Source: Watersipora subatra (lineage: Eukaryota; Bryozoa; Gymnolaemata; Cheilostomatida; Watersiporidae). Taken from it: a stretch of 64,000 nucleotides of DNA. Positions 5,521 through 29,900 of the stretch are shown here, in pieces. Within the stretch, counting starts at the first letter, position 1; every line of letters begins with the position of its first letter. The notes under the pieces were generated by a model. It searched no databases. It saw nothing but the letters and a program-made list of their open reading frames with translations, and was not told the DNA's origin. The DNA is taken from positions 56,628,010 through 56,692,009 of the forward strand of contig NC_088712.1 in assembly GCF_963576615.1 (NCBI RefSeq). Reading direction: 5' to 3'. The translations under genes were made by a program, and so were the position numbers.

Positions 5521-5910
5521 GAAACGAAGTTAGATTGTCCATAGAGACATTCGGGTACCCTGGAACCTTCTACAGAGATGAGCGGATAAAAATATCATGC
5601 GCGGCTATTGGAGAGTCTGAAGTTACAGCTGTGTACTTGGTCAATGGGGATAATGTGGCTAGCCCTAGAACTGCTTGCCGTTATGACGTTAATACCAACA
5701 AATGGCTACCTGTTAATGAGCTGCTTATAACAAAGATATCCGCACTCACAGAAGCATACTGTCAACTTGTTGCAGCTTCTGCCCCTCCATATGTTTTCTC
5801 TTTAATAGGAACTGTTTCAACAGAGCTGCTTGGTATTAGCTTCAAATGCTTCGCTGAGTTCTCTTCTCAGCGTGCCAGCTCTATCACCGTGCGTGTCTCG
5901 ACTATTCAAG
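5521..5910 (+). CDS. Extra Ig exon present only in copy 1
   Basis: The 390-bp exon is phase 1 on both sides, with acceptor GTGCTTGTAG and donor GTGAGT. It encodes about 129 residues with candidate disulphide cysteines in ISCAAIG and FKCFAEF and a V-type-like length. In copy 2 the matching genomic segment (about 4790-6440 here) is deleted, so that paralog has one Ig domain fewer. Phase symmetry means its loss keeps the frame. Confidence 0.75.
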
Positions 5911-8900
5911 GTGAGTTTGTTTTTAGATTTTTCTTTATTTTTCTCGTAATGTAATGAGAGTACTTTTTATTTCTGCATGTCTAAATTTCAGTGTTTGTCT
6001 GTTTGTTGATCCATTGCCAAGTGTCCAGTGAGAGATCATCACGTGTAACATAACGATTATTAAACTGTCTTCAGACATTACTATTATTATAGCAAGATTT
6101 AGACCAGATTAAGTTATTTATTTGTATCAAATTTATTGGGTAATTATTTTATTAATATCAATTCGGGCATTCAGCTAGTTGTATAAACTTAATGTTTCTA
6201 ACATGTATGTTTCTTAAATGTATGTATAAACTTATAGTTTCTAACATTTATTTTTATATTTTCTTCTTGTCGTCTTGCCTATTGGTTGGTTTGCAAGTTA
6301 TTAAAATGATAAGAATATTCAATTGTTCATAAAATTACTCCAACAAGCAAAAAATAAATTTTATACTTACTCAATTTGTTCTATATCTTGTCAAATTATT
6401 TCATTTTGCTATATGGAAATTCAAGTCTGACTATCTAATTTCGTCTGATAAGTTTGGAAGTTTTTTGCAAGCTTTCATTTTAAGAAGTGCTCCTTTTATT
6501 TTCGCTTCCATTAACCAATATGCGCAATTTTCTGAGCTCCATAGCTCCCCTTTAACATGTTTTGTGACATATTTCAGTATTACATGTACGTCATCTTAAA
6601 AAAATCTAATCCGCTTGAACAGCCGGTATTTTGAATTGTATTATATTTGTATTGAATTGCTTTGGTTGGGCTATAATGAATTTGAAAAGTCATAGACTCA
6701 ACATTAATGAGTATTTTTTACTTTTTCATAGTATTCTGTGCTCTAGTATATGTATTTGTCTTAGTGAATTTTATTAACTAATTCAAAAGTAAAAGGTCTT
6801 GCATTGGATAAAATTATGAAACAAGCGGAACTACATTATATCTAGATGTAAGTAATAGTTACAGCAACATATTAAAGTTTTTTGCAGTCAACTTTTTCAT
6901 GAGTTTACTTTTTGTTTTTGGTTAAGGCCTGAATTTTGACACAGTTTAAATTGGAAGTTTAATGGCTGACCACGATTGACTTCAATGAATATTAAAATCT
7001 GTAAACCAGAATTTCCCAGCCTTGAGAATTCTAACATTGAGTCACGATCGAGCTGGCTCACCTCTACTTCCTCTCATCACTAAACAAATTTATCTCAAAA
7101 GGTTTTCTATTATGAAGTTGCTATTAGGTTAGAGTCTATAGAAGTAACTAGTGTTATGACAGTGGTATGTGCAGTGAAAGCACATCAAGTGAGCCAATAG
7201 GGCACAAGAATTTTGTTGTCCCAAAAAGTGAGCAATTGGAGAAGGTGATAGCGCGCTAGTTATAAAAGGTTGAGAGAATAGTTTTCCCAATCTCTAGCCA
7301 TGACTTTGAGCAGACAGACAGACAGACACAGCTCTCATTATAGTAAAGATTACAATTTATATGTGTAAGTCTGAATGTTTGTCTTTTTTCTTTTGTTTTT
7401 GGAAGTTTCTGTGTTTAGGAATAGAAATTCAAATCTAACAATGAAGAATCATGGGGTACTAAAATTGAACACACAGAGATTGCAACTTTAAGTATGCAAA
7501 TGTGCGAACCAAACCACAAGACTAAACCATTCTTATCTTATTTATCTATGGTAGCCTTATGGTGAATAAAGCCAAATATTTTTTGTTATGAATTAACATT
7601 AACTTTTGTGTTTGTTCTTCTTTCAAATTTTTTTTGTAGGCCATTTTATAATACATTGTTCATTTTTTTATTTGTAATTTTCAAATGTGCCATTTTAAAT
7701 TACAGTTAAGACTAAATTGTTGATTACAGTTAAAATTAAATGGAAGTTGTACCAATAAAGTGTAACTGTAAAAGCACAATGTCAGTCCTCAAATTTTAAT
7801 TATTGCAAAATGCAATCACTAGATATGGTAAAGCTGAAAAATATTCGCATGGACCTTCTCAATTATGAATTGCCTCTAAATTCTCTCTCTTTTCAGGCAG
7901 ACAAAGTACTCTCATACGCTCTACAGGTGTATTTAATTTTGACATCTCATTTTTATATTTGTGCCAGCATCATCAGGTACCAGTATCGTCATATTCAAAA
8001 TTGTGATGGATATATATGGGAAATAATTAGCAAGTAGTGGCTGGTGTAGGTACAAGAAGTAGGTGTATAAAAAGGTTACGATTTCTGCAGAAGCTATAGC
8101 TTCTGCAGAAATCGTAACCTTTTTATACACCTACTTCTTTGTACTCCTCGATATTATTATTTCAGCATAGTCATAAATTTTATTTTGGTATATCAGTTCG
8201 TTTTAATTGTATCAATATTAATTGCAATCATTGTAACAAAATTGTTTTTATCCAGCCACTACTTGCTAATTATTTCCCATTTAAACCCCTTTACAGTTGC
8301 TTTATTTTTCTCTTAATTTATTTTAAATGCACAACAAACTTTCCTCATGATATGAAATTTAAAAGTTATGCTGGTAAATGTTTCAAATGTTGAATAAAAA
8401 TAACTTTTCTGAGTAAAAACTTTTTATTAGTCAGGCAATGTCGGGCAATGTCGGGCATTCGACAATAATTTATTCATGAAGTGGGAAAGCAACTGAGTGG
8501 TGCATGTGCTAAGAGAGGTAGACGGGAAATCGGTGTACTTGAGTTTGATTCCTGTGTGAGACAATTTCCTTTTTTACCACTTTTACCGTGCCTTTGGACA
8601 GACGGATGGACCCTGCTACTATTATAGTAAAGATTGTGCATAATTATATTTTATTCCTGTAGGTTATTGACACACATGACAATCTCTCACAGCACGCACA
8701 ACTGCCAGGTTACTAGCTGTCATAATTTTTGCAGATATACCTAAGAAGTTGACGCTGAACAGTCCTGATAAAATAATTGAAGGTCAAGGGTTCACCTTTT
8801 CTTGCCAGTCTTCCGGAGGGAGTCCTGAATCTAATTTTTCCTATGGTTTGTAATGCAAATTAGTGGAGTAAGTGGTTGCACAGGCACTCACCCATCCAAT

Positions 8901-17900: not shown

Positions 17901-20900
17901 ACAAACTAAGCGAGTAGTATAGTGAGAGCAGATCTACACACCTTTGCACTTAAAGTTGGATTTTGGGTACATTTTAGCCCAAGAACCTCGGAGAATGGTG
18001 TTGTCTGATGGAAAGTTTGGGGGGGGTAGGTGTGTGAGTGTTGGGAGCTAAGGTTATGAAGTTTGAGAGGAATTGTGGGAAGGATGCGGTGCCGGTCTCG
18101 AGAGGAATCGCGGGAAGGATGACGTCAAGAGGGGCGACGGTTTCGCGTTTCGATGCGACGGGTTTGGGGTTTCGTCGACGTCGGCGACGACGACGTCGAC
18201 GAGTTGAGCGATCGAACGTCGAATGGTTGGGGTCGGGTTGGCGACCGGTGGGGTGAACGTTGTTATGTCGTTTCGGTTGAATGAACGCTGATGTTGGACG
18301 AGTTCGGGCGTGTCTATTCGTGGAATCGATTAACTGTCCATTCACTATTTATAAGTTAAGAGTTTTATATATATGAACATTATATCATTGAGAAGTTCAA
18401 CTAGAAGGAATATAAAATTATGGAAACTATTCATAAGGATAATTCTAAAGTTTACAATTCTTGTGAAGAAGAAAAAGATGAAACAGATGGATTAGTTGAA
18501 GAGGCTGTATTATTACATAATCATTTTGATAACATCACTAAATCTACATCAAAACCGCTTCGACAAAGTTTGCTTCAATTTTTTGGAGTGGTTTTAATAT
18601 TACTTGCAATAACTGTAGCTTCATCTTTGATTGAATATTTTTTTATTCGGATTACAGGAGAAAAGATGAATGCTACTGTGAACTATGTAGAAGTATTTTT
18701 TCAAAATCTTGTGAATAATGAAAGTATGATTTTTGAAACATCTCCTCATCATTATAATTAGTTTAAATGAAAACTTCAAATGTTAGTAATTATCAAAACA
18801 TGGAGAAAGACGGACTACAATCAATTGATGTGAGGTTACATTCTCCTTTCACATCTATGATAACAGGACCAACAGGATCAGGAAAAACTCAACTCGTTAA
18901 ACGGTTGATTGAACAATCTCAATTAATATCTGCTCCTCCTCCAATCGAAATTATATATTGCTATGGAATATGGCAGGAAGCTTTTGAGGATATGACAGGA
19001 GTGGAATTTCATGAAGGATTGAAAGATCCGAGTACTTTTCCCAAAGATGGAGAAAATAGATGGATGATCATTGATGATCTAATGGAGGAATTATCATCAA
19101 ATATCAAGATGGCTAACAATTTGTATACTCGAGAAAGTCACCATCTAAATATTAGTATTTTTACTATTACACAAAACTTATTCTTTGGTAAACTTAGAAC
19201 AATTTCGCTGAATAGTCACTATTTTTTTTATAGGAAAAAACCCCAGGGATTCTACATCAATCACATTTTTAGGAAAACAAGTTTTTCCTGGACAAGTTAA
19301 ATATTTTCAGGAATCCTACCGAGATGCAACATCTTCACCATATTCCTTCATGAGACTGGACCTCCGACAAGAAACCGATGATACAATGAGAATTATGGGA
19401 AATTTCCCTCCTGTTGACTCTACGCCTATGATTATTTATAAGCCTAATTAAGCAAACGATTTTGATTTGTATTCCATAATTAAATAAAACAAGTATATAT
19501 TCCAAGTTCTCTTTAAATATTCACCATACTACTTCTGTATCTTCCTCTGAGTGATTACTATAACATCACTAAAATTATCACATAGATATGGCTGAAACAA
19601 AAAGAATTCAACGAAATTTACTAACTTTATTATCTCTAGTTGGAGATTCTATTTCTTCTCAACAATCGATTATTAAAAATGCTAAAACGGATTTAATTTT
19701 AGCAATTATTGATTGTGTGAAATTACTCATTAAAAGAAAAGAACGACTAACTGATGCTCAGTATAAAGCTTTGAGTCGACAAAGTAAAAACATCGCTCGA
19801 CTGATTAGTCCTAGAACATCGAATTTGGAAAAGAAACAACTTTTGCAAAAAGGAGGGTTTTTATCGGCTTTACTAGGTCCGATCGCGGGTGCTATACTCC
19901 CAGGATTAGTTGAACCATTGCTCGGAGGATTGTTTAAAACACGAAGAAGAAAATAATTAAGTTATCATGGATAATTCTCCACTTTCTAAGAGAATGAAAA
20001 AAAAACAGAGTAATTCTGCAAATACTGAACGGTCTTACCGATGAACTTGCAAGTTCTGCTTTACCTCATATGAAAGAAGAAGTAATTAGAACATTACTTG
20101 AAATTGTTAAAAATATTATATATGGGAATGTACCTTTAACGAAAAATCAATACCATTCTCTGAGTCAACATAAAAAGGAGTTGATGAATATTATCGATGA
20201 AAACAAACCTCTTAAATATAAACGAAAGATTTTGCAAAACGGAAAAGGATTATTGAAACGGATTATAAAGCCATCCCTCAACTTGTATTAATCATTCAGC
20301 AGGAAGATGAGCTTTCCTAAGTATACAAAAAAATTTTTTTTGGTTTCTGAAGACGAGTACAAACGGAACCAATTTAAAAGTCAACAGGATTCAAAAATTA
20401 TCAATGATGGCTATAGTTCGTCACTTCGTTTTAATCCATTAGAAAATCCAAGAGTAAGTAAGGTTAAGAAGACCAGAGATAGGATGCGTCAAATTAATAA
20501 CGATAACACTATTTCAGACTATAACAAAGTTAATTTGTATGCAGCTGAACTTCAAAAATTTTTAGATGAAATGAATTCAATTCGGAGTTATCCAATTCAA
20601 CAGTCTCCGACTATTCGAAATCCGATTTCAATGATGTCACAAACACCTTCAGCTCCACAAAATTCAAAAGAAACTCTAAAGAAAGATACACCTGAATTAC
20701 CCGAAGATAATTCGTCTCAAGACTCTACAGTTTTAAAAGAATCGCCAAAAAAAGAAGACACATTATTACCACCGAAGTTAAACGAAGAAGAACCATCGTC
20801 AAATTCTTCTAGATCTTATTCCATTTCTTCAATAGTTGAAGACTTCGGTTCGATTTAGGATCGAACTAAAGCGAAAAATCTTCTGGAAAAATTGAAAAAG

Positions 20901-23900
20901 TCTGGGAATTATGATTCTTTAACCGGGAAAATAACAGGATCTACAGGAGAGATTAAACCTGAGAACTTACGAAATCTTCTTGAAAGAAAGATTCGAGTTA
21001 AAGATAGTTCAATTGTATCTTCTCCCTTTTCTCCAAGTTCATTTGAGAAACAATATAACTTATTTGAAAAAATTATCAAGGAGTCGAACTCGAATTTATC
21101 AAATAAATCAAAATCCAATTCGAATAGATCGTCTTCACGAAAACCTTATGTAGGAACAAGAGGAAAATGGACGACTTACTAAATGAATTCTATTATACCC
21201 CGGATCTACCATCTTCATTAGGTGGAGCACGAAAACTGAATGAAGCACTTCGGAGAAAAGAAAGCGAACAAGAAGTTAGAGATTGGTTAAGTGGTGAAGA
21301 TGCTTATACGTTACACAAACAAATAAAAACGAAATTTAGAAGAAGACCTACAATTGTTGCAGGAGTTGGTGAACAATTACAGGCTGATTTAATGGATGTT
21401 AGATCTCATCGAGCTGAAAATGATGGAATTACATTTTTACTTACAATGATTGATGTTTTTTCAAGAAAAGCATGGGTAGAGCCTCTTGTTAACAAATCAG
21501 GTATATTGGTAGCAAAAGCCTTAAAAAAAGTATTGGATGGAACTAATTATAGAGTTTTTCAAACAGACAAAGGAAAAGAGTTTAATAATCGAGATGTCAA
21601 AAAAGTTTTGAAAGAAAATAAAGTAAAATGGTTTACATCTGAGAATGAGACAATTAAAGCTTCCATCATAGAACGATTCAACAAAACATTACGGGTGAAG
21701 ATGTATAGATTCATGACATATTCGGATGATCGTAGATATATTGATGTTTTACCACAAATGGTAAAAGCATATAACAATACTATTCACACAACATTAGGAA
21801 TAAAACCGAATGATGTAAATTATGAAAATCAAGAAAGAATCTGGAATAGGATTTATGAAAATGGAGAATATAGTTCTGACAGTACTCCCAAATTCAATAT
21901 TGATGATTACGTTCGTATTAGTAAAGCTAGAACAGTTTTCGAAAGAGGTTTCACAATAAATTGGACAGTTGAAGTTTTTCAAATTACAGAAGTGCTTGAT
22001 TTTGAAAGACCGATTATCTATAAATTACGTGATTTAGCAAACGAACCGGTTGATGGAACTTTTTATGAAGATGAACTACAGAAAGTAAAAAAACCCGCAT
22101 TTTTTCGAATTGAGAAAATTCTCAAATCTCGGAAACGAGGAAGAACAAAGGAAATACTCGTTAAATGGATGGGATATCCTGATTCATTCAATAGCTGGGT
22201 CAATGAAAGAGATTTTGTTAAATAAAAGAGGATGATAAGGAATTGAACTTCATTGAAAGAATTGAAAATGTCGGAGTTCGTAACTCTTCCTTCTGATGCT
22301 AGTTTTAGTGACTTTCCTAAAAATACTAATTCAAACTTTACAGTTAGACTAGCCAGATATGTAGATTTTACAGAAGGACAATGGGAAGTTGCTCTAAAAG
22401 ATATATCGTTTTTAAATAATTGGCCAAATGTAGTAGGAGGAATAATAAGCATCACAAAAGCGGAACTTAATGGGAGATTTCGTCGTTTCGACATAAAAAT
22501 TGGAAATGGAAGATACGAAGATATAGATGAAGTAATTCAATGAACTCATGATGTTCTAAAATCCTTCAATCTCCATCCAACTATAGAATTCGGATACGAC
22601 AAAATATCCAACAAATCTATGTTGTATGTAAGAGATTCGAGTGTTCAGGTTTCGTTTTCACAAGATTTCGCAAATATCTTAGGATTAGATCCGAAGATAA
22701 TTTATAATGTGGGAAAACACGGAAACATCACATCTCCGGATATCAACTATGGATTTACATCATTATACGTATATTCATCAATTGTAAGTAACAGACTCGT
22801 TGGAGATGCAAATGTACGATTGCTACGAGTTGTCCCAGTAAGTGGAAAGAAGTTCTCTCGAGTTTATACAGAATTCAGTCAAGCGCATTACGTTGAAGTG
22901 GATAAAATTTCTACTGATGTGATAGAGACCCTTATAACAAGTGATGATGGAGAAAAAGTACCATTTGATGGAGGGAAGGTTATACTAACGGTTCATTTCA
23001 GAAAGAAACAATGAATTCCATATTAATTCCATATACTCCAGAAGACTCAAAAAACTTTTACATTCAATATTACACGTCTAATCAATCAGGAAATGGCGGA
23101 TTGACACCATATAAAGGAAAGAGAGTGATGGGAAATGGACGACTATCAGGAATATTTAAAAAATTAGCAAAAGCTGTTGCGCCTCTAGCAAAAAAAACGG
23201 CTATCTCATTAGGGAAAAAAGGGTTAGATGCTGCATCCAATTATCTTAATAACATGGTAGAGAGACCAAAAGAAGAAGAAGAAGAAACAGATGAAGTAGT
23301 AATTCCAAGAGTTAGAAAACCTGGGAAAAGAAAATTAAATAACCGTAGCAAACCTGCAAAGCGACGGAGAAAAGCCACTCCAAATATTTTTTTAAATTTG
23401 AAAATGCTTTATATATTATTATCTCAATATTTTTTAGTTCATTTCATTGACATACATCAATAGTGAAAGATGAGTTCTGGAGAGATTGGTTCAACAGGTT
23501 TAAAAATATCGGGTTCTCCTTTTACGATAAACGAAAGTTTGGGTATATTTGATGTTCCAGGCACACATAGTTCGGTGGAGCACGGATATTATAGTGAATT
23601 AGCTCCGTCACGTCTCAGTGAATATGGGCCAATTGAAATTGAAATACCTGGAGATGTAGATCACTATATCGATTTAAGTAATTCATATTTGCAAATCGAA
23701 GGAAAAGTAGTCAAGGACGATGGTTCCAATTTAGACAATACTGCTGCTAATGTAAATGTTGTACCAGGGGATGCGTTTTTTCATTCGCTAATCAAAACAG
23801 CAACATTCAAAATTAATGGATCTGTTGTTGAACATTCAAGTGATTATCCTATGAGATCGTTCATAGAAACCCTTCTCAATAATAGCAGAGAAGAAAAACA

Positions 23901-26900
23901 ATACCAATTAAAAGCAGAAGGATGGTTTCAAGATGATAATCTTGCAAAAGATGGTGCGGAATTCGATAATAGTGCGACTACAGCAAGAAAGAATCTTATT
24001 AGAGGTTCAAACACATTTGAGTTTTTTGGACGACTCCATCTTAGCATTTTTCAACAGGAAAGATATCTCATTCCAGGATTGAATTGTAAATTAGAACTAG
24101 ACCGAAGTAAACCAAGTTATTGTTTGATGGCAGCAACAGCTACTCCTGGAGGAGGGGGAAAAGTAAAGTTGACGAAATGTGTACTTCATCTTCGAAAATT
24201 AAAAATCAACCAAACAATTCAGCTTTTACATAACGAAAAACTACTTAATGGTGTTAATGCAAAGTATCCTCTTTCTCGGGTATACACCAGATCTTATAAT
24301 GTGAATACTGGATTAACCCATACTCAAATAAAAATTGCTGATAACACACTTAGACCAAATTTAATACTTGTTTCACTTTCATCACACGATGGAGAAAATG
24401 GATCATACAATCGTAATCCTTTCAAATTTGGTCATTACGATGTGAGTCATGTAGAACTACAAATTGATGGACTACCTTTTGGAAAACGATATACTCCAAA
24501 TTTTGTAAATAGAATGTATACTCGACCATATGTACAACTTCTAAATGCAATGGGAAAAGATCTTTCTTCTGAAGGAAGTGGAATTGGACTGAGTGAATAT
24601 GAAACTGGACTTGCAATATACGCTTTCAATTTGACAGGAGATCTCTCATCCGAAGGATTTCATTTAATGAGACATGTTTCACTAACAATCGATATCGGTT
24701 TTCGGGTTGCAACACCAGAAAATGTCTATCTTAATACATATATACAAAAAGATGGAATGATGGAAATCGCTTCTGACTTTAGCGTTCGACTCAGTGGTGG
24801 AAGCATATTCTAAGGATGAATACAGCAAATATTTTCGATGTTCTTTCCCAAGATCACATGACTAATAATCATTTTTTTGCTGTCTGTGCAAGAAATGAAT
24901 TTATAGAACAAGTTTTATCGAATGAAGGAATATATATTTTTAACACACACTATTCTTATCAACCAGGAGAACACTGGATAGGAGTTATTCGAACAAAATC
25001 CGAAATTAATTATTTCGATTCAACAGGACGAGATCCTTCAACATATCCAGATGTCGCTCAAATCTTAAAACTTTCTGGAATAAAGTTAATTAAATGGAAT
25101 GATGTTCTACTCCAAGGTTTTCTTTCAACAACATGTGGAGATTACTGTCTTCTCTTTGCAATATTTTGGAGCAGAGGATGTTCAATAGAAGATTTTCTAA
25201 CAGTTATGCTAAAAATTTCTGAATAAGATACACGAGATCATGTAGTTCGAAAAACTATACTAGATAGATATGATTGGAATGGAAAAATTAGTAAAAGTCT
25301 TAATAACGAAGAAAATGAAGGTATTGACAATGTACATATTCAAGGAACTTCCCAAATTGTTAAATTACTAGAAGAACTGACATAAAATTTTTTTTCTATA
25401 TTTTACAATTGAATATACATATATACTTTATATCGAAATAAACTTGGTAAAAAATACAACCGAATGTTATTTACTTTTTTGATATAAGTTTTATATATTG
25501 ATATACTCACGCTGAGTTGGAGTTATCCTCAAAATAATCCACATATTAATCCATGTATGCCTCTTTACTAGTTCATCATCTTCATCTATTTACTGGTCGA
25601 GAGACTGTTATGGAATGGTTAAGCCAAACCAAACAGGAGAATTCCATAGGTAAACCTAGGAAAACAATCAGGTCGAATGCCAAGGCGCTTCTCCACACAA
25701 CAGCCCCTGAAAACAGCGACACTCAACGAACTTAATCGCGAGTAGCCGACTAACAGAATTCTAGCTGAAGCATACAAGCCTTATGGTATCAACGCTCGAT
25801 CGACCCAAATTCTCAAATATAAGTAGGCATCAAGAGATGGTTAATGAGGCAGAATATTCCATCGGATCATGCAATGCTTATATAGTGAATTGAAGAATGA
25901 TGGGTGTGTCCAAAGGAATTAATGAGGCGAAAATAGCAAACAGATTTTCGCGAAATTGAATTTCGCAAAAGTTGACTATATAATATATATGATGTGAAAT
26001 TTCGCGAAATCCAATTTCGCGAAAGTTGACTATATAATATATATGATGTGAAATTTCGCGAAATCCAATTTCGCGAAAGTTGACTATATAATATATATGA
26101 TGTGAAATTTCGCGAAATCCAATTTCGCGAAATTCACTTTTCGCGAAATTCAATTTCGCGAAAGTTGACTATATAATATATATGATGTGAAATTCCGCGA
26201 AATCCAATTTCGCGAAAGTTGACTATATAATATATATGATGTGAAATTTCGCGAAATCCAATTTCGCGAAATTCACTTTTCGCGAAATTGAATTTCGCGA
26301 AAGTTGACTATATAATATATATGATGTGAAATTTCGCGAAATCCAATTTCGCGAAATTCACTTTCGCGAAAGTTGACTATATAATATATATGTGTAATTT
26401 CGCGAAATTCATTTTCGCGAAATTGTAAGCATAGAGAAATGTTTTGTAATCTATTTATAAATTTTCATTAAACTCACTCAAGCGTTTTACAGATGCTCAA
26501 CTATATAAAGCAATCGAGAACGAATCATTATTATCATAACACTCTTCATAAGCTAACAGAATTCTGAGAAGGGTAAAATGTCAGAAGGGAAATGTACAGA
26601 TAGTTGTGTTCAAATTTGGGCTACACCATGGGAATATTGTACACACGGACTACTTTCCTGTACATGTGGACATGTATATGATGGATTAGCACAATGTGTA
26701 CATTGGTAAGTACATTTTGAAATTTTAAATTCTAAAGTTTTATATGAATATATAATTATTCATTTTATATACATCATCTTTTCTCAATTTTCAATGGATT
26801 TTCAAAAAATTAAACAGGTATCAAGAAGATGGTGAGGAAAGTGATGAAAAAAACATCTCGAAAGAAACAAACTCTCAAAATAGTGAAACGGAGTTGCAAT

Positions 26901-29900
26901 TGGATTTACCATTGGATTATCCTATAGACAGATTACCTTCCTGCACATGTGGACAAGACGTATACGATGGCTTAGCTCAATGTATATTTTGGTAAGTAGA
27001 TTTTGAGAATTTTAAAACCAAAGATATATAGTTATCCATTTATTTCATCCTTTCTCATTCCTCAATGTTTTATATATTTAAACAGTGATGATGCAAAACA
27101 AAAAGAAGATGATGAGAAAAGCGAGTCAAGCAGCACATACTTCTTTCTCGATAAGAAAGAATTACAATATTCTGAAGTGACAAGCTCTTCATCTCCACAG
27201 AAAACTGACAATTAGTATTTATAAAAAAGATTTTTTTTTTTTTTTGAATGAATATATATGCAAATCAATAGAACCTTTAGAAATAAAATCTTCATCTCCA
27301 AAGATGGAGAATTTATATTTTATTGTATATTTTAAGATACTATTATTAAAATAAAATCAATACAATATTCACATATCATTTTCATTGTGGAATAAAAATT
27401 TAGGAAAGCATGATAATTAGATTACAACTTTAGCAGCAGCATGTGATTATGATAAAAAATTTCGACATCCTGTAATTTGTCTACAGAAAAACTTTCATTT
27501 CCATAGCCTCTTTCTTTATTACTTGGAGGGGTATTAGTTATATTTTCCTTAAGATTTTCAGATGATGGAAGAGTTGTGATTCCACTTGCTAGAATGATGG
27601 TAGCGAGTGTAGTTGTGGTGGTAGTAGGAATTGTACTAGCGAGTGTAGTTGTGGTGGTGGTAGGAATTCTGGATGTATGTGTAGTTCTGATGGTGGATCG
27701 AGTAGTGGAAGAATTAATTGGAGCTGTAAATCTACCATTATTTTCTTCGAATTGTGGATGATAACAAACAAACTTAATAGGCATTGATCTCCATCCACAA
27801 AAGTTTGAACGAGCTGAGTTGCCTACACAATATCTCGCTGACCGTGAAGATGGATTAGCCCATTGAACAAGTCGTTCAGTAATTCCCAACCTTTGAATAA
27901 TTTCATAACTAGCTATACCATAAGTACAATCCGAGGGGTTATGTTCAAATTGAATTAAATTTTGTAAAAATTCACCGTTAACCGGAAAAAATCCAAAACT
28001 AATAAATAGTATTGGAGAAATTTGAATTATATCATCTAGTTTTCTATAAAGACTCTTCATGTCTTCTCAAAAGAAATTTTTCATAATGAATAATTCATTC
28101 GACTTTCCCCTTTTTTATTACTCATCTTTAAAGAGTTTTATAACGAAGGGAGACTTAACCGATTCCACGAATAGACACGCCCGAACTCGTCCAACATCAG
28201 CGTTCATTCAACCGAAACGACATAACAACGTTCACCTCACCGGTCGCCAACCCGACCCCAACCATTCGACGTTCGATCGCTCAACTCGTCGACATCGTCG
28301 TCGCCGACGTCGACGAAACCCCAAACCCGTCGCATCGAAACGCGAAACCGTCGCCCCTCTTCACGTCATCCTTCCCGCGATTCCTCTCGAGACCGGCACC
28401 GCATCCTTCCCACAATTCCTCTCAAACTTCATAACCTTAGCTCCCAACACTCACACACCTACCCCCCCCCAAACTTTCCATCAGACAACACCATTCTCCG
28501 AGGTTCTCGGGCTAAAATGTACCCAAAATCCAACTTTAAGTGCAAAGGTGTGTAGATCTGCTCTCACTATACTACTTAAGCGTTAGTAACTCATTTGCAG
28601 TATATATGCATATATACTAACATGCTGAAATTATATACTAACATGTATGCTAACATTATATACTAACATAGATACTAACATATATACTAACATTATGCAA
28701 TCATTAAATACTAACATATATACTAACATATATACTAACACATTACTAACATTATATAATAACATAGATACTAACATATATACTAACATTATGCAAACAT
28801 TACATACTAACATATAAACTAACACATGTACCAACTTATATACTAACATATCTACTAAAATTATATACGAACCTTTATACCAGTGGTTCCCAACTACCTT
28901 GGAGCCATGGACCCCTGAGCTACTTATATAAAAGTCATGGACCCCTTTATAAACATCATAATATATTATGTTTATAACAATGTATTGTAAAGTGGATTGC
29001 ATTATAAATTAGAATAATATAAAAGTCAGCAGATTTGATGTGTTTCTATTTATTTACTTATATAAAGCAATGCTATACTAAATTGCTTTGACTGTTAATT
29101 TTCAGTAGTCAGTTTGTTAGTGGGATGGATTGTACTTCTTACCTTTCACCAAATTCTCAATCTTTGGGAAAATGGTTGACAAAGCGCATCGCATGTCGTC
29201 TTCAAGTCCCAGTCGGTTTCGTTGTTTCGATTTGAGAACAACCATGGAGGAGAAAGCGAACTCGATTAAGTATGTAGGCACAAATGGGAGCAGAGTTCGA
29301 AGGGCGGGTTTGGCTGTCTGTGGATATGGATGAATCATGGAAGGCCAAAATTTTTCAATAGTTTTATCTTCATAAACATCTTTGGTTATTTTACTGATCT
29401 GCTAATTTCATTTTGTTGTCAAATAAATATAGTTGCCAAATATTGTCACAATTATGATCAGTCAGTTGCCATTAACAAGCATTCATGATATTAATAGTTG
29501 CCATTGTGAAATTATCCAAATTTGGTTTTACATTTAGATTTTTAGCATGAAAACTACACTGCACAGCTTTGCCCGCTGTCCCATCTTATTGGCCAGGTCA
29601 AACAATGTGACAACGACAAAAGTCTGCCATTTTATATTAGAGGTGGAAAAATATTAATTAAAAACTAGGGAAAAAAGATCGTTGTTCGGGTGATTTCGGG
29701 TAAATTATATTTAAATTTAAGCATATACCAAGACCCCTAAAAACCTCAAAATTGGTAAAAATAAGTAAGTTGAAATGTTTTATTTTACATGGATCTTAGT
29801 ATATTGCTGAAATTGAAGAAGAAAAGAGAGAATCATGTGTTTGCTGGTTACAGGTTGTGTTGTTTTGTACTACTAACCGGAAATCAGGTAATATCCAGCA

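What the first reader, a model, noticed from the sequence alone, without database searches (positions are those of the whole stretch)
17913..28576. Compact Polinton with all virion and integration genes but no DNA polymerase B
Seen: precise borders (6-bp TSD, 421/422-bp TIRs) enclose ATPase, integrase, protease, major and minor capsid genes in 10.66 kb, and no frame carries family B polymerase motifs. Known: autonomous Polintons and adintoviruses encode a protein-primed polymerase. Inference: this is either a virion-competent but replication-dependent form that borrows a polymerase in trans, a satellite-like lifestyle, or a one-off internal deletion.
Basis: partly seen in the sequence, partly recalled or inferred. 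Interest (0 to 1): 0.88.

Follow-up and report, generated by a model that had tools for sequence, protein, structure and literature searches.

The report
Polymerase-less Polintons with capsid-less partners
This stretch is one of more than a hundred closely similar virus-like elements in one genome that carry genes for a virus shell and for inserting into DNA but no recognisable gene for copying themselves, and they share their ends with an even more stripped-down partner element, so they probably borrow the copying enzyme from something else.

Summary
In detail: 17913-28576 is a 10.66-kb Polinton-type element with inverted repeats, a 6-bp duplication, integrase, ATPase, protease and capsid genes, and no detectable family B polymerase. 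It is not a one-off deletion: the census found 113 copies of its capsid gene at 94% identity or more; ten of ten inspected repeat pairs have matching 6-bp duplications, eight of them distinct; no PF03175 match lies within 60 kb of any of the 113. A second lineage (16 copies, 37-41% identical) is likewise unlinked. The window copy itself has interrupted ATPase, minor capsid and protease genes. New here: a second class with the same termini carries a conserved 208-aa ORF (135 close copies) and, in 32 of 32 delimited pairs, no capsid gene. Both classes split alike into young and old by terminus, with few exceptions. The AGTAGT//ACTACT ends match a Maverick motif tied to protein-primed replication (PMC8097293), so I favour a polymerase supplied in trans. 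No helper was found, polymerase detection is imperfect (6 of 15 control loci), and nothing shows present activity.

The parts
17907..17912 (.). left 6-bp target-site duplication TAAGCG
   Evidence: identical to 28577-28582
17913..18348 (+). left terminal inverted repeat, starts AGTAGTATAGTGAGAGC; (AGT)2 end motif
   Evidence: the 19-base terminus occurs 309 times in the genome, the pattern read backwards 0 times
18405..18758 (+). ORF of 118 aa, unknown function, left of the ATPase, where the first module of vertebrate Mavericks lists the polymerase
   Evidence: module order from PMC8097293 passages
18767..19297 (+). packaging ATPase, cut short in this copy (177 aa; 227 aa in 12 of 15 loci)
   Evidence: Adeno_IVa2 E 1.2e-6; 8e-7 to the ATPase of a PolB Polinton
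19573..19953 (+). ORF of 127 aa, unknown
19998..20288 (+). ORF of 97 aa, unknown
20292..21179 (+). ORF of 188 aa and, after an in-frame stop, ORF of 107 aa; unknown
   Evidence: not compared with other copies
21128..22222 (+). retroviral-type (rve) integrase with C-terminal chromodomain
   Evidence: 111 of 113 capsid copies have it within 3.5 kb
22247..23011 (+). minor capsid protein, interrupted by an in-frame stop in this copy (also in L061); 254-255 aa open in 25 of 30 loci
   Evidence: 0.004 to the minor capsid protein of a PolB Polinton
22969..23460 (+). ORF of 164 aa with basic tail between minor and major capsid genes
23467..24810 (+). major capsid protein, 448 aa, open here
   Evidence: no stop in 81 of 94 scored copies of 188 candidates
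24783..25223 (+). cysteine protease, cut short in this copy (147 aa; 200 aa in 27 of 30 loci)
25120..26425 (.). block shared with the class B element read: protease 3' end, spacer, and palindromic TTTCGCGAAA repeats (19 in the element, 0 in the rest of the window)
   Evidence: about 96% over 1.1 kb between B copy L068 and A copies L046/L060/L044
26578..27215 (+). possible small spliced gene with a repeated Cys-rich exon (read by eye, not tested)
27425..28066 (-). ORF of 214 aa with Thr-rich stretch, unknown; full length in 11 of 13 loci
28140..28576 (-). right terminal inverted repeat, ends ...ATACTACT
28577..28582 (.). right 6-bp target-site duplication TAAGCG

Best explanation
The element belongs to a stable, high-copy lineage of Polintons without a DNA polymerase of its own (class A: virion genes plus integrase, about 10.6-11.2 kb where undisturbed). 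It shares termini with a second, still more reduced class (B: a 208-aa ORF, no virion or integrase genes in the copy read, 7.9 kb and up); the B copy read also has its TTTCGCGAAA block. Most likely cycle: (1) a protein-primed polymerase made by another element or by an infecting virus copies the linear DNA from the AGTAGT ends (inferred); (2) class A integrase inserts A and B DNA, making 6-bp duplications (duplications shown for A; that the integrase does it, and does it for B, is inferred); (3) class A ATPase and capsid proteins, where intact, package A and possibly B (inferred). What A and B have in common, the ends and the repeat block, are the likely cis signals (inferred). B would then depend on A, and both on a polymerase source: a nested satellite arrangement.
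For: Census: 113 A1 capsid segments at 94-100% identity, 111 with the integrase within 3.5 kb. 10 of 10 A pairs with matching 6-bp duplications, 8 distinct. Nine A pairs among the listed exact termini measure 10.6-11.2 kb, which leaves no room for a polymerase gene beside the genes seen here. No PF03175 match within 60 kb of any of 113 A1 copies or within 284 kb of any of 16 A2 copies; 14 of 16 A2 copies have an integrase of their own within 3.5 kb, so lack of a linked polymerase is seen in two lineages only about 40% identical. B class: 135 copies of the ORF at 94-100% plus 15 at 72-74%, without stop in 122 and 14 of these (150 of 290 candidates scored). None of 32 terminus pairs enclosing the ORF encloses the capsid gene; none of 135 + 15 has a listed integrase within 8 kb (150 of 323 integrase candidates were scored); the B copy read has no significant capsid, ATPase or integrase match. 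A and B split in parallel on C1-C4, where all exact termini are listed: terminus near 8 of 8 high-scoring and 0 of 14 lower-scoring A copies, and near 31 of 31 high-scoring and 1 of 16 lower-scoring B copies (exceptions in the next field). Termini AGTAGT//ACTACT equal the commonest end motif of vertebrate Mavericks, which PMC8097293 ties to jumping-back in protein-primed replication (passages).
Against: No helper with matching ends was found: none of 42 delimited pairs encloses a PF03175 match, and the ordinary Polinton at C5:27984196-28000201 has another terminus and no TTTCGCGAAA in the pieces read. PF03175 recall is limited: only 6 of 15 PF21738 capsid loci have a PF03175 match within 20 kb, so absence in A2, whose elements were not read, is weaker than in A1, where the window sequence is complete. 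The score cuts were set after seeing the gaps; two B rows in its low group are partial matches of 98% identity (one with, one without terminus), and one A copy not scored (C2:76135010, 97% over the segment) has the exact terminus at both ends. One B ORF lies 5.9 kb from an A capsid gene on C8, with two termini between them, so probably a neighbouring insertion. Substitutions among A copies chosen by their repeats show no purifying selection in three ORFs (ratios 0.85, 3.56, 1.04). No expression, particle or extrachromosomal DNA evidence. The end motif could be an inherited relic.
Confidence: 0.55

Rival explanations
1. Cut-and-paste: the rve integrase acts as a transposase, as in Ginger elements, and host replication and repair account for copy number; no polymerase is needed and the capsid genes are passengers or serve transfer between cells.
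For: Ginger DNA transposons encode an integrase-like transposase and are classed as cut-and-paste; [quoted passage not shown] In the 39 integrase rows at 100% identity the frame is 365-368 aa in 38 and 330 aa in one.
Against: PMC2836005 describes Ginger1 families as small with relatively low copy numbers, whereas here there are 113 A1 copies and 309 exact termini of both classes. The AGTAGT replication end motif is kept. An inverted-dimer B element (C4:53840235-53854341) looks like a template-switch product of replicating linear DNA, although its target duplication could not be read and a later rearrangement is possible.
Confidence: 0.2
2. Single deletion, then hitch-hiking: a full Polinton with these ends once lost its polymerase, and that defective form was amplified in one or two bursts by its own full-length parent, now lost or rare; the capsid genes are relics without function.
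For: A1 copies are 94-100% alike over the segment and substitutions among copies show no purifying selection. Amplification of a non-autonomous form by an autonomous parent is ordinary transposon biology.
Against: The A2 lineage, about 40% identical in capsid and integrase, also shows no linked PF03175 match. Capsid frames are free of stops in 81 of 94 A1 copies scored, and 10 of 16 A2 rows have frames of 417-457 aa, which argues for selection between bursts. No parent with the same termini was seen among 42 delimited pairs.
Confidence: 0.2
3. A novel replication protein is encoded by the element itself or by class B (for example the 118-aa, 188-aa or 208-aa ORF), so A alone, or A plus B, would be self-sufficient with host polymerases.
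For: The 118-aa and 188-aa ORFs have no Pfam match above cut-off, and the 208-aa ORF has no Pfam match, only two close relatives, and no convincing PDB match. The 208-aa ORF keeps its length in lineages about 27% apart.
Against: Nothing positive points to replication; the proteins are small for a polymerase or helicase.
Confidence: 0.1

Closest known systems
Polintons / Mavericks (Polintoviricetes), including adintoviruses
   Same: rve integrase, ATPase, protease, minor and major capsid genes; order integrase, minor capsid, small ORF, major capsid, protease as in vertebrate Mavericks; long inverted repeats; 6-bp target duplications; (AGT)2 ends
   Different: no pPolB and well below the 15-20 kb given in PMC4028283; a 118-aa ORF and a repeat block; a capsid-less partner class with the same ends
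Polinton-like viruses and virophages
   Same: capsid genes, often without a Polinton polymerase; helper dependence known for virophages
   Different: most such viruses without pPolB encode helicases or other replication proteins (PMC12747079 and PMC11071308 passages); none recognised here; rve integrase kept
Polymerase-less endogenous viruses of protists (Bellas et al. 2023, PMC10120064)
   Different: protist hosts; authors consider undetected replication genes possible; no capsid-less partner class in the passages seen
Non-autonomous DNA transposons (internal deletion derivatives)
   Same: class B keeps ends and an internal block but, in the copy read, no integrase
   Different: class B keeps an open 208-aa reading frame in two lineages
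Ginger DNA transposons
   Same: integrase-type transposase and inverted repeats without a polymerase
   Different: no capsid genes (recalled); Ginger1 copy numbers relatively low (passage)

Membership tests
Polinton/Maverick | long terminal inverted repeats with 6-bp target-site duplication | tested here: met
Polinton/Maverick | rve-family integrase | tested here: met
   (rve 8e-10, Chromo 9e-8)
[quoted passage not shown]
   profile match to a PF21738 capsid protein, E 7.5e-18; by sequence profile only, structure prediction was off
Polinton/Maverick | packaging ATPase and cysteine protease | tested here: met
   both cut short in this copy, full in most loci compared
[quoted passage not shown]
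   so it is a polymerase-less relative, not a complete Polinton
Polinton-like virus | helicase or other replication gene in place of pPolB | tested here: not met
   no helicase, primase or polymerase family above its cut-off among the 10 reading frames scanned with Pfam; the 97-aa, 107-aa and 164-aa frames were not scanned
Virophage | dependence on a giant virus | not testable with these tools
   no infection data
Satellite of Polintons | replication supplied in trans by a helper with compatible ends | tested here: inconclusive
   end motif of the protein-primed kind, but no helper with matching ends found

The most novel reading that the evidence does not exclude
A split-genome Polinton: the virus-like system is spread over separately integrated, co-amplifying modules with common ends, one carrying capsid and integrase (A), one carrying a conserved 208-aa gene (B), and a polymerase supplied from a third, dispersed source, for example the 29 of 35 PF03175 places without a detected double-jelly-roll capsid gene. 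All packaged modules would carry the same cis signals.
Probability: 0.25. Interest if true: 0.92.

Novelty: new variant of a known kind. Interest (0 to 1): 0.74.

Why it matters
Polintons are described as self-synthesizing. A lineage that kept shell and integrase but amplified to over a hundred copies without a recognisable polymerase, together with a capsid-less partner using the same ends, would be a helper-satellite hierarchy inside a nuclear genome. It makes testable which sequences a Polinton polymerase and packaging machine recognise, because the A and B copies compared share only the ends and one repeat block. It also warns that surveys that drop Polintons under 10 kb as incomplete (as PMC4028283 did, passage) may discard real lineages close to that size.

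Tried and rejected
One-off deletion or assembly collapse of this copy: rejected, many insertions with distinct duplications. Three C8 copies sharing AGCCTT were treated as probable segmental duplicates, and two of the three were dropped.

Longer copy on C7 (14.0 kb) as a possible full-length form: it is an A copy with about 3.2 kb of sequence unmatched in the window beside one end (L067). Longer B pairs: L069 contains a 596-aa frame that I take by eye for a Copia-type retrotransposon, and L070 is the middle of an inverted B dimer.

Selection on the capsid gene among 30 copies (28 nonsynonymous, 29 synonymous): not used, because those copies were picked by protein score. The set picked by repeats shows no purifying selection; a single B comparison (20 nonsynonymous, 5 synonymous) shows none either, but one of the two B copies is interrupted.

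Coupling of the older B2 lineage with A2 through shared ends: not shown. L071, taken upstream of a B2 ORF, matched 12 of 40 scored places next to B2, none near A2 or PF03175 places; only 40 of 664 candidates were scored.

Relatives elsewhere: three scans of viral contigs found none. Protein searches gave one near-identical capsid protein and ten of 27-33% identity on contigs up to 341 kb, without gene context, and only two for the 208-aa protein. Host not identified. The gene families PHROGs gave nothing beyond integrase-type matches.

Rows dropped before counts: of 135 rows, six partial rows were left out and 16 set apart as A2, leaving 113 A1. Second fragment rows of one place were left out. 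Of the 100 termini listed only the 50 beyond C5:43.68 Mb were classified. One search used the 22 A rows and the 47 close B rows that lie on C1-C4; one search repeats the A part with all 28 A1 rows on C1-C4 (9 with, 19 without the terminus).
Full report
What is there. Window 17913-28576 is flanked by TAAGCG on both sides and bounded by inverted repeats that begin AGTAGTATAGTGAGAGC. Inside lie, left to right, a 118-aa ORF, an ATPase, small ORFs, an rve integrase with chromodomain, minor capsid, a 164-aa ORF, the major capsid protein and a cysteine protease, then a block of palindromic TTTCGCGAAA repeats, a possible small spliced gene and a 214-aa ORF on the other strand. The capsid identification rests on a profile match to the PF21738 capsid protein of an ordinary Polinton of the same genome. 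That Polinton (C5:27984196 to about 28000201, 16.0 kb, repeats about 598 bp) has polymerase, integrase, capsid, ATPase and protease genes. The order integrase, minor capsid, small ORF, major capsid, protease follows the second module of vertebrate Mavericks (PMC8097293, passages). The polymerase, listed first in their first module, is absent; left of the ATPase stands only the 118-aa ORF.

Is this copy intact? No. ATPase, minor capsid and protease frames are interrupted in the window copy; full frames are seen in 12 of 15, 25 of 30 and 27 of 30 loci respectively (the window copy is one of the loci in each count). The major capsid frame is open here and free of stops in 81 of 94 scored copies.

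Is it one deletion? No. The 100-aa capsid census scored all 138 candidates and gave 135 matches: 113 at 94-100% identity (A1), six partial rows, 16 at 37-41% (A2). An integrase match lies within 3.5 kb of 111 of 113 A1 and 14 of 16 A2 capsid genes. Ten A1 repeat pairs fetched all have matching 6-bp duplications, eight distinct. Left and right repeats are 98-100% identical in the eight pairs measured, so the insertions are recent.

Where is the polymerase? PF03175 gives 35 places. The nearest is 224 kb from any of the 94 A1 capsid genes, more than 60 kb from all 113, and 284 kb from any A2. As a control, 6 of 15 PF21738 capsid genes have a PF03175 match within 20 kb, and 6 of 35 PF03175 places have such a capsid gene. 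The method finds linkage where it exists, but misses some or the polymerase is decayed there. Twenty-nine polymerase places have no detected capsid partner; ten of these rows report frames over 1300 aa, three of them with a stop inside.

A second class with the same ends. The 19-base terminus occurs 161 times forward and 148 times reversed in the genome, the backward control 0 times. Of 42 pairs among the first 100 listed, nine enclose the capsid gene, 32 a 208-aa ORF, none both, one neither; of 16 unpaired termini two lie near the capsid gene, nine near the ORF, five near neither. One such B element was read over its interior (L068). It has no significant match to capsid, ATPase or integrase, keeps the protease 3' end and the TTTCGCGAAA block (about 96% identical to A copies over 1.1 kb) and carries the 208-aa ORF, long minisatellites (68- and 110-bp units) and a 98-aa ORF. 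The 208-aa ORF has 150 scored copies of 290 candidates: 135 at 94-100% and 15 at 72-74%; 122 and 14 without stops. No Pfam family, no convincing PDB match and no relative beyond two close ones was found.

A and B change together. On contigs C1-C4, where all exact termini are listed, the capsid copies fall into two score groups, with the exact terminus near 8 of 8 in the upper and 0 of 14 in the lower; for B 31 of 31 and 1 of 16. The cuts were set at gaps seen in the scores. Exceptions: the B copy with terminus in the lower group is a partial match (98%) interrupted by a retrotransposon-like insert (L069); another partial 98% B row in the lower group has no terminus; and one A copy outside (C2:76135010, 97% over the segment) has the terminus at both ends (9 of 28 A1 copies on C1-C4 with, 19 without). 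On the whole both classes changed ends in step, as expected if one machinery serves both. Whether old A and old B share one older terminus was not tested.

How it may work. The duplications show integrase-type insertion. The ends AGTAGT//ACTACT are the commonest end motif of vertebrate Mavericks, and the authors connect such motifs with the jumping-back step of protein-primed replication (PMC8097293, passages). An element without polymerase that keeps these ends at many loci is most simply read as a substrate of a polymerase supplied in trans. The one ordinary Polinton examined ends in AAGAGATATAAAAAGC or one base inward, and no TTTCGCGAAA was found in the two pieces read, so it is probably not the helper. 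Cut-and-paste in the manner of Ginger remains possible (PMC2836005, passages). Substitution patterns among copies show no purifying selection, so any function is exercised by a few source copies, not by the bulk of integrated ones.

Against what is known. Polymerase-less capsid-bearing elements have been noted in protists (PMC10120064, passage), and one Polinton survey removed elements under 10 kb as incomplete (PMC4028283, passage). Eight text searches of the held open-access library listed, among the rows shown, no paper whose title or abstract start reports an animal Polinton lineage without polymerase, with or without a capsid-less partner. Subscription papers and Repbase were not searched, and two relevant papers (PMC8502044, PMC10748475) are not held.

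Noticed in passing
L068 (C2:10901640-10908800), 150-773 and 5863-6159: Class B element: conserved 208-aa ORF of unknown function and a 98-aa ORF between ends shared with the window element; 135 close copies of the ORF plus an older lineage of 15 among 150 scored.
   Followed up: yes
C4:53840235-53854341 (L070 is its middle): Inverted dimer of class B: a B ORF at both ends in opposite orientation and an asymmetric junction at the TTTCGCGAAA block; could be template switching on a linear molecule.
   Followed up: partly
genome-wide PF03175 places, e.g. C9:4771903, C10:40027538, C6:66297935: 29 of 35 family B polymerase places have no detected PF21738 capsid gene within 20 kb; ten of these rows report frames over 1300 aa. 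Possible helper source.
   Followed up: no
C6:5613901-5632785: Pair of exact termini 18.9 kb apart with neither the capsid gene nor a listed 208-aa ORF nearby; content not read.
   Followed up: no
L071 (C1:44310240-44310540): Sequence upstream of an older-lineage 208-aa ORF has 664 candidate matches genome-wide; of the 40 scored, 28 are not beside that ORF. Possibly a further large family.
   Followed up: partly
window 25480 region; L042-L047, L049-L054, L057, L060-L064: Two subtypes of class A differ by an insertion of roughly 185 bp downstream of the protease gene; the class B copy read carries the inserted subtype.
   Followed up: partly
C8:7983514, C8:9011828, C8:11118579: Three A copies share the same duplication AGCCTT, probably segmental duplications on one chromosome.
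   Followed up: partly
window 28602-28859: Minisatellite of ACTAACATATAT-like units directly beside the element.
   Followed up: no
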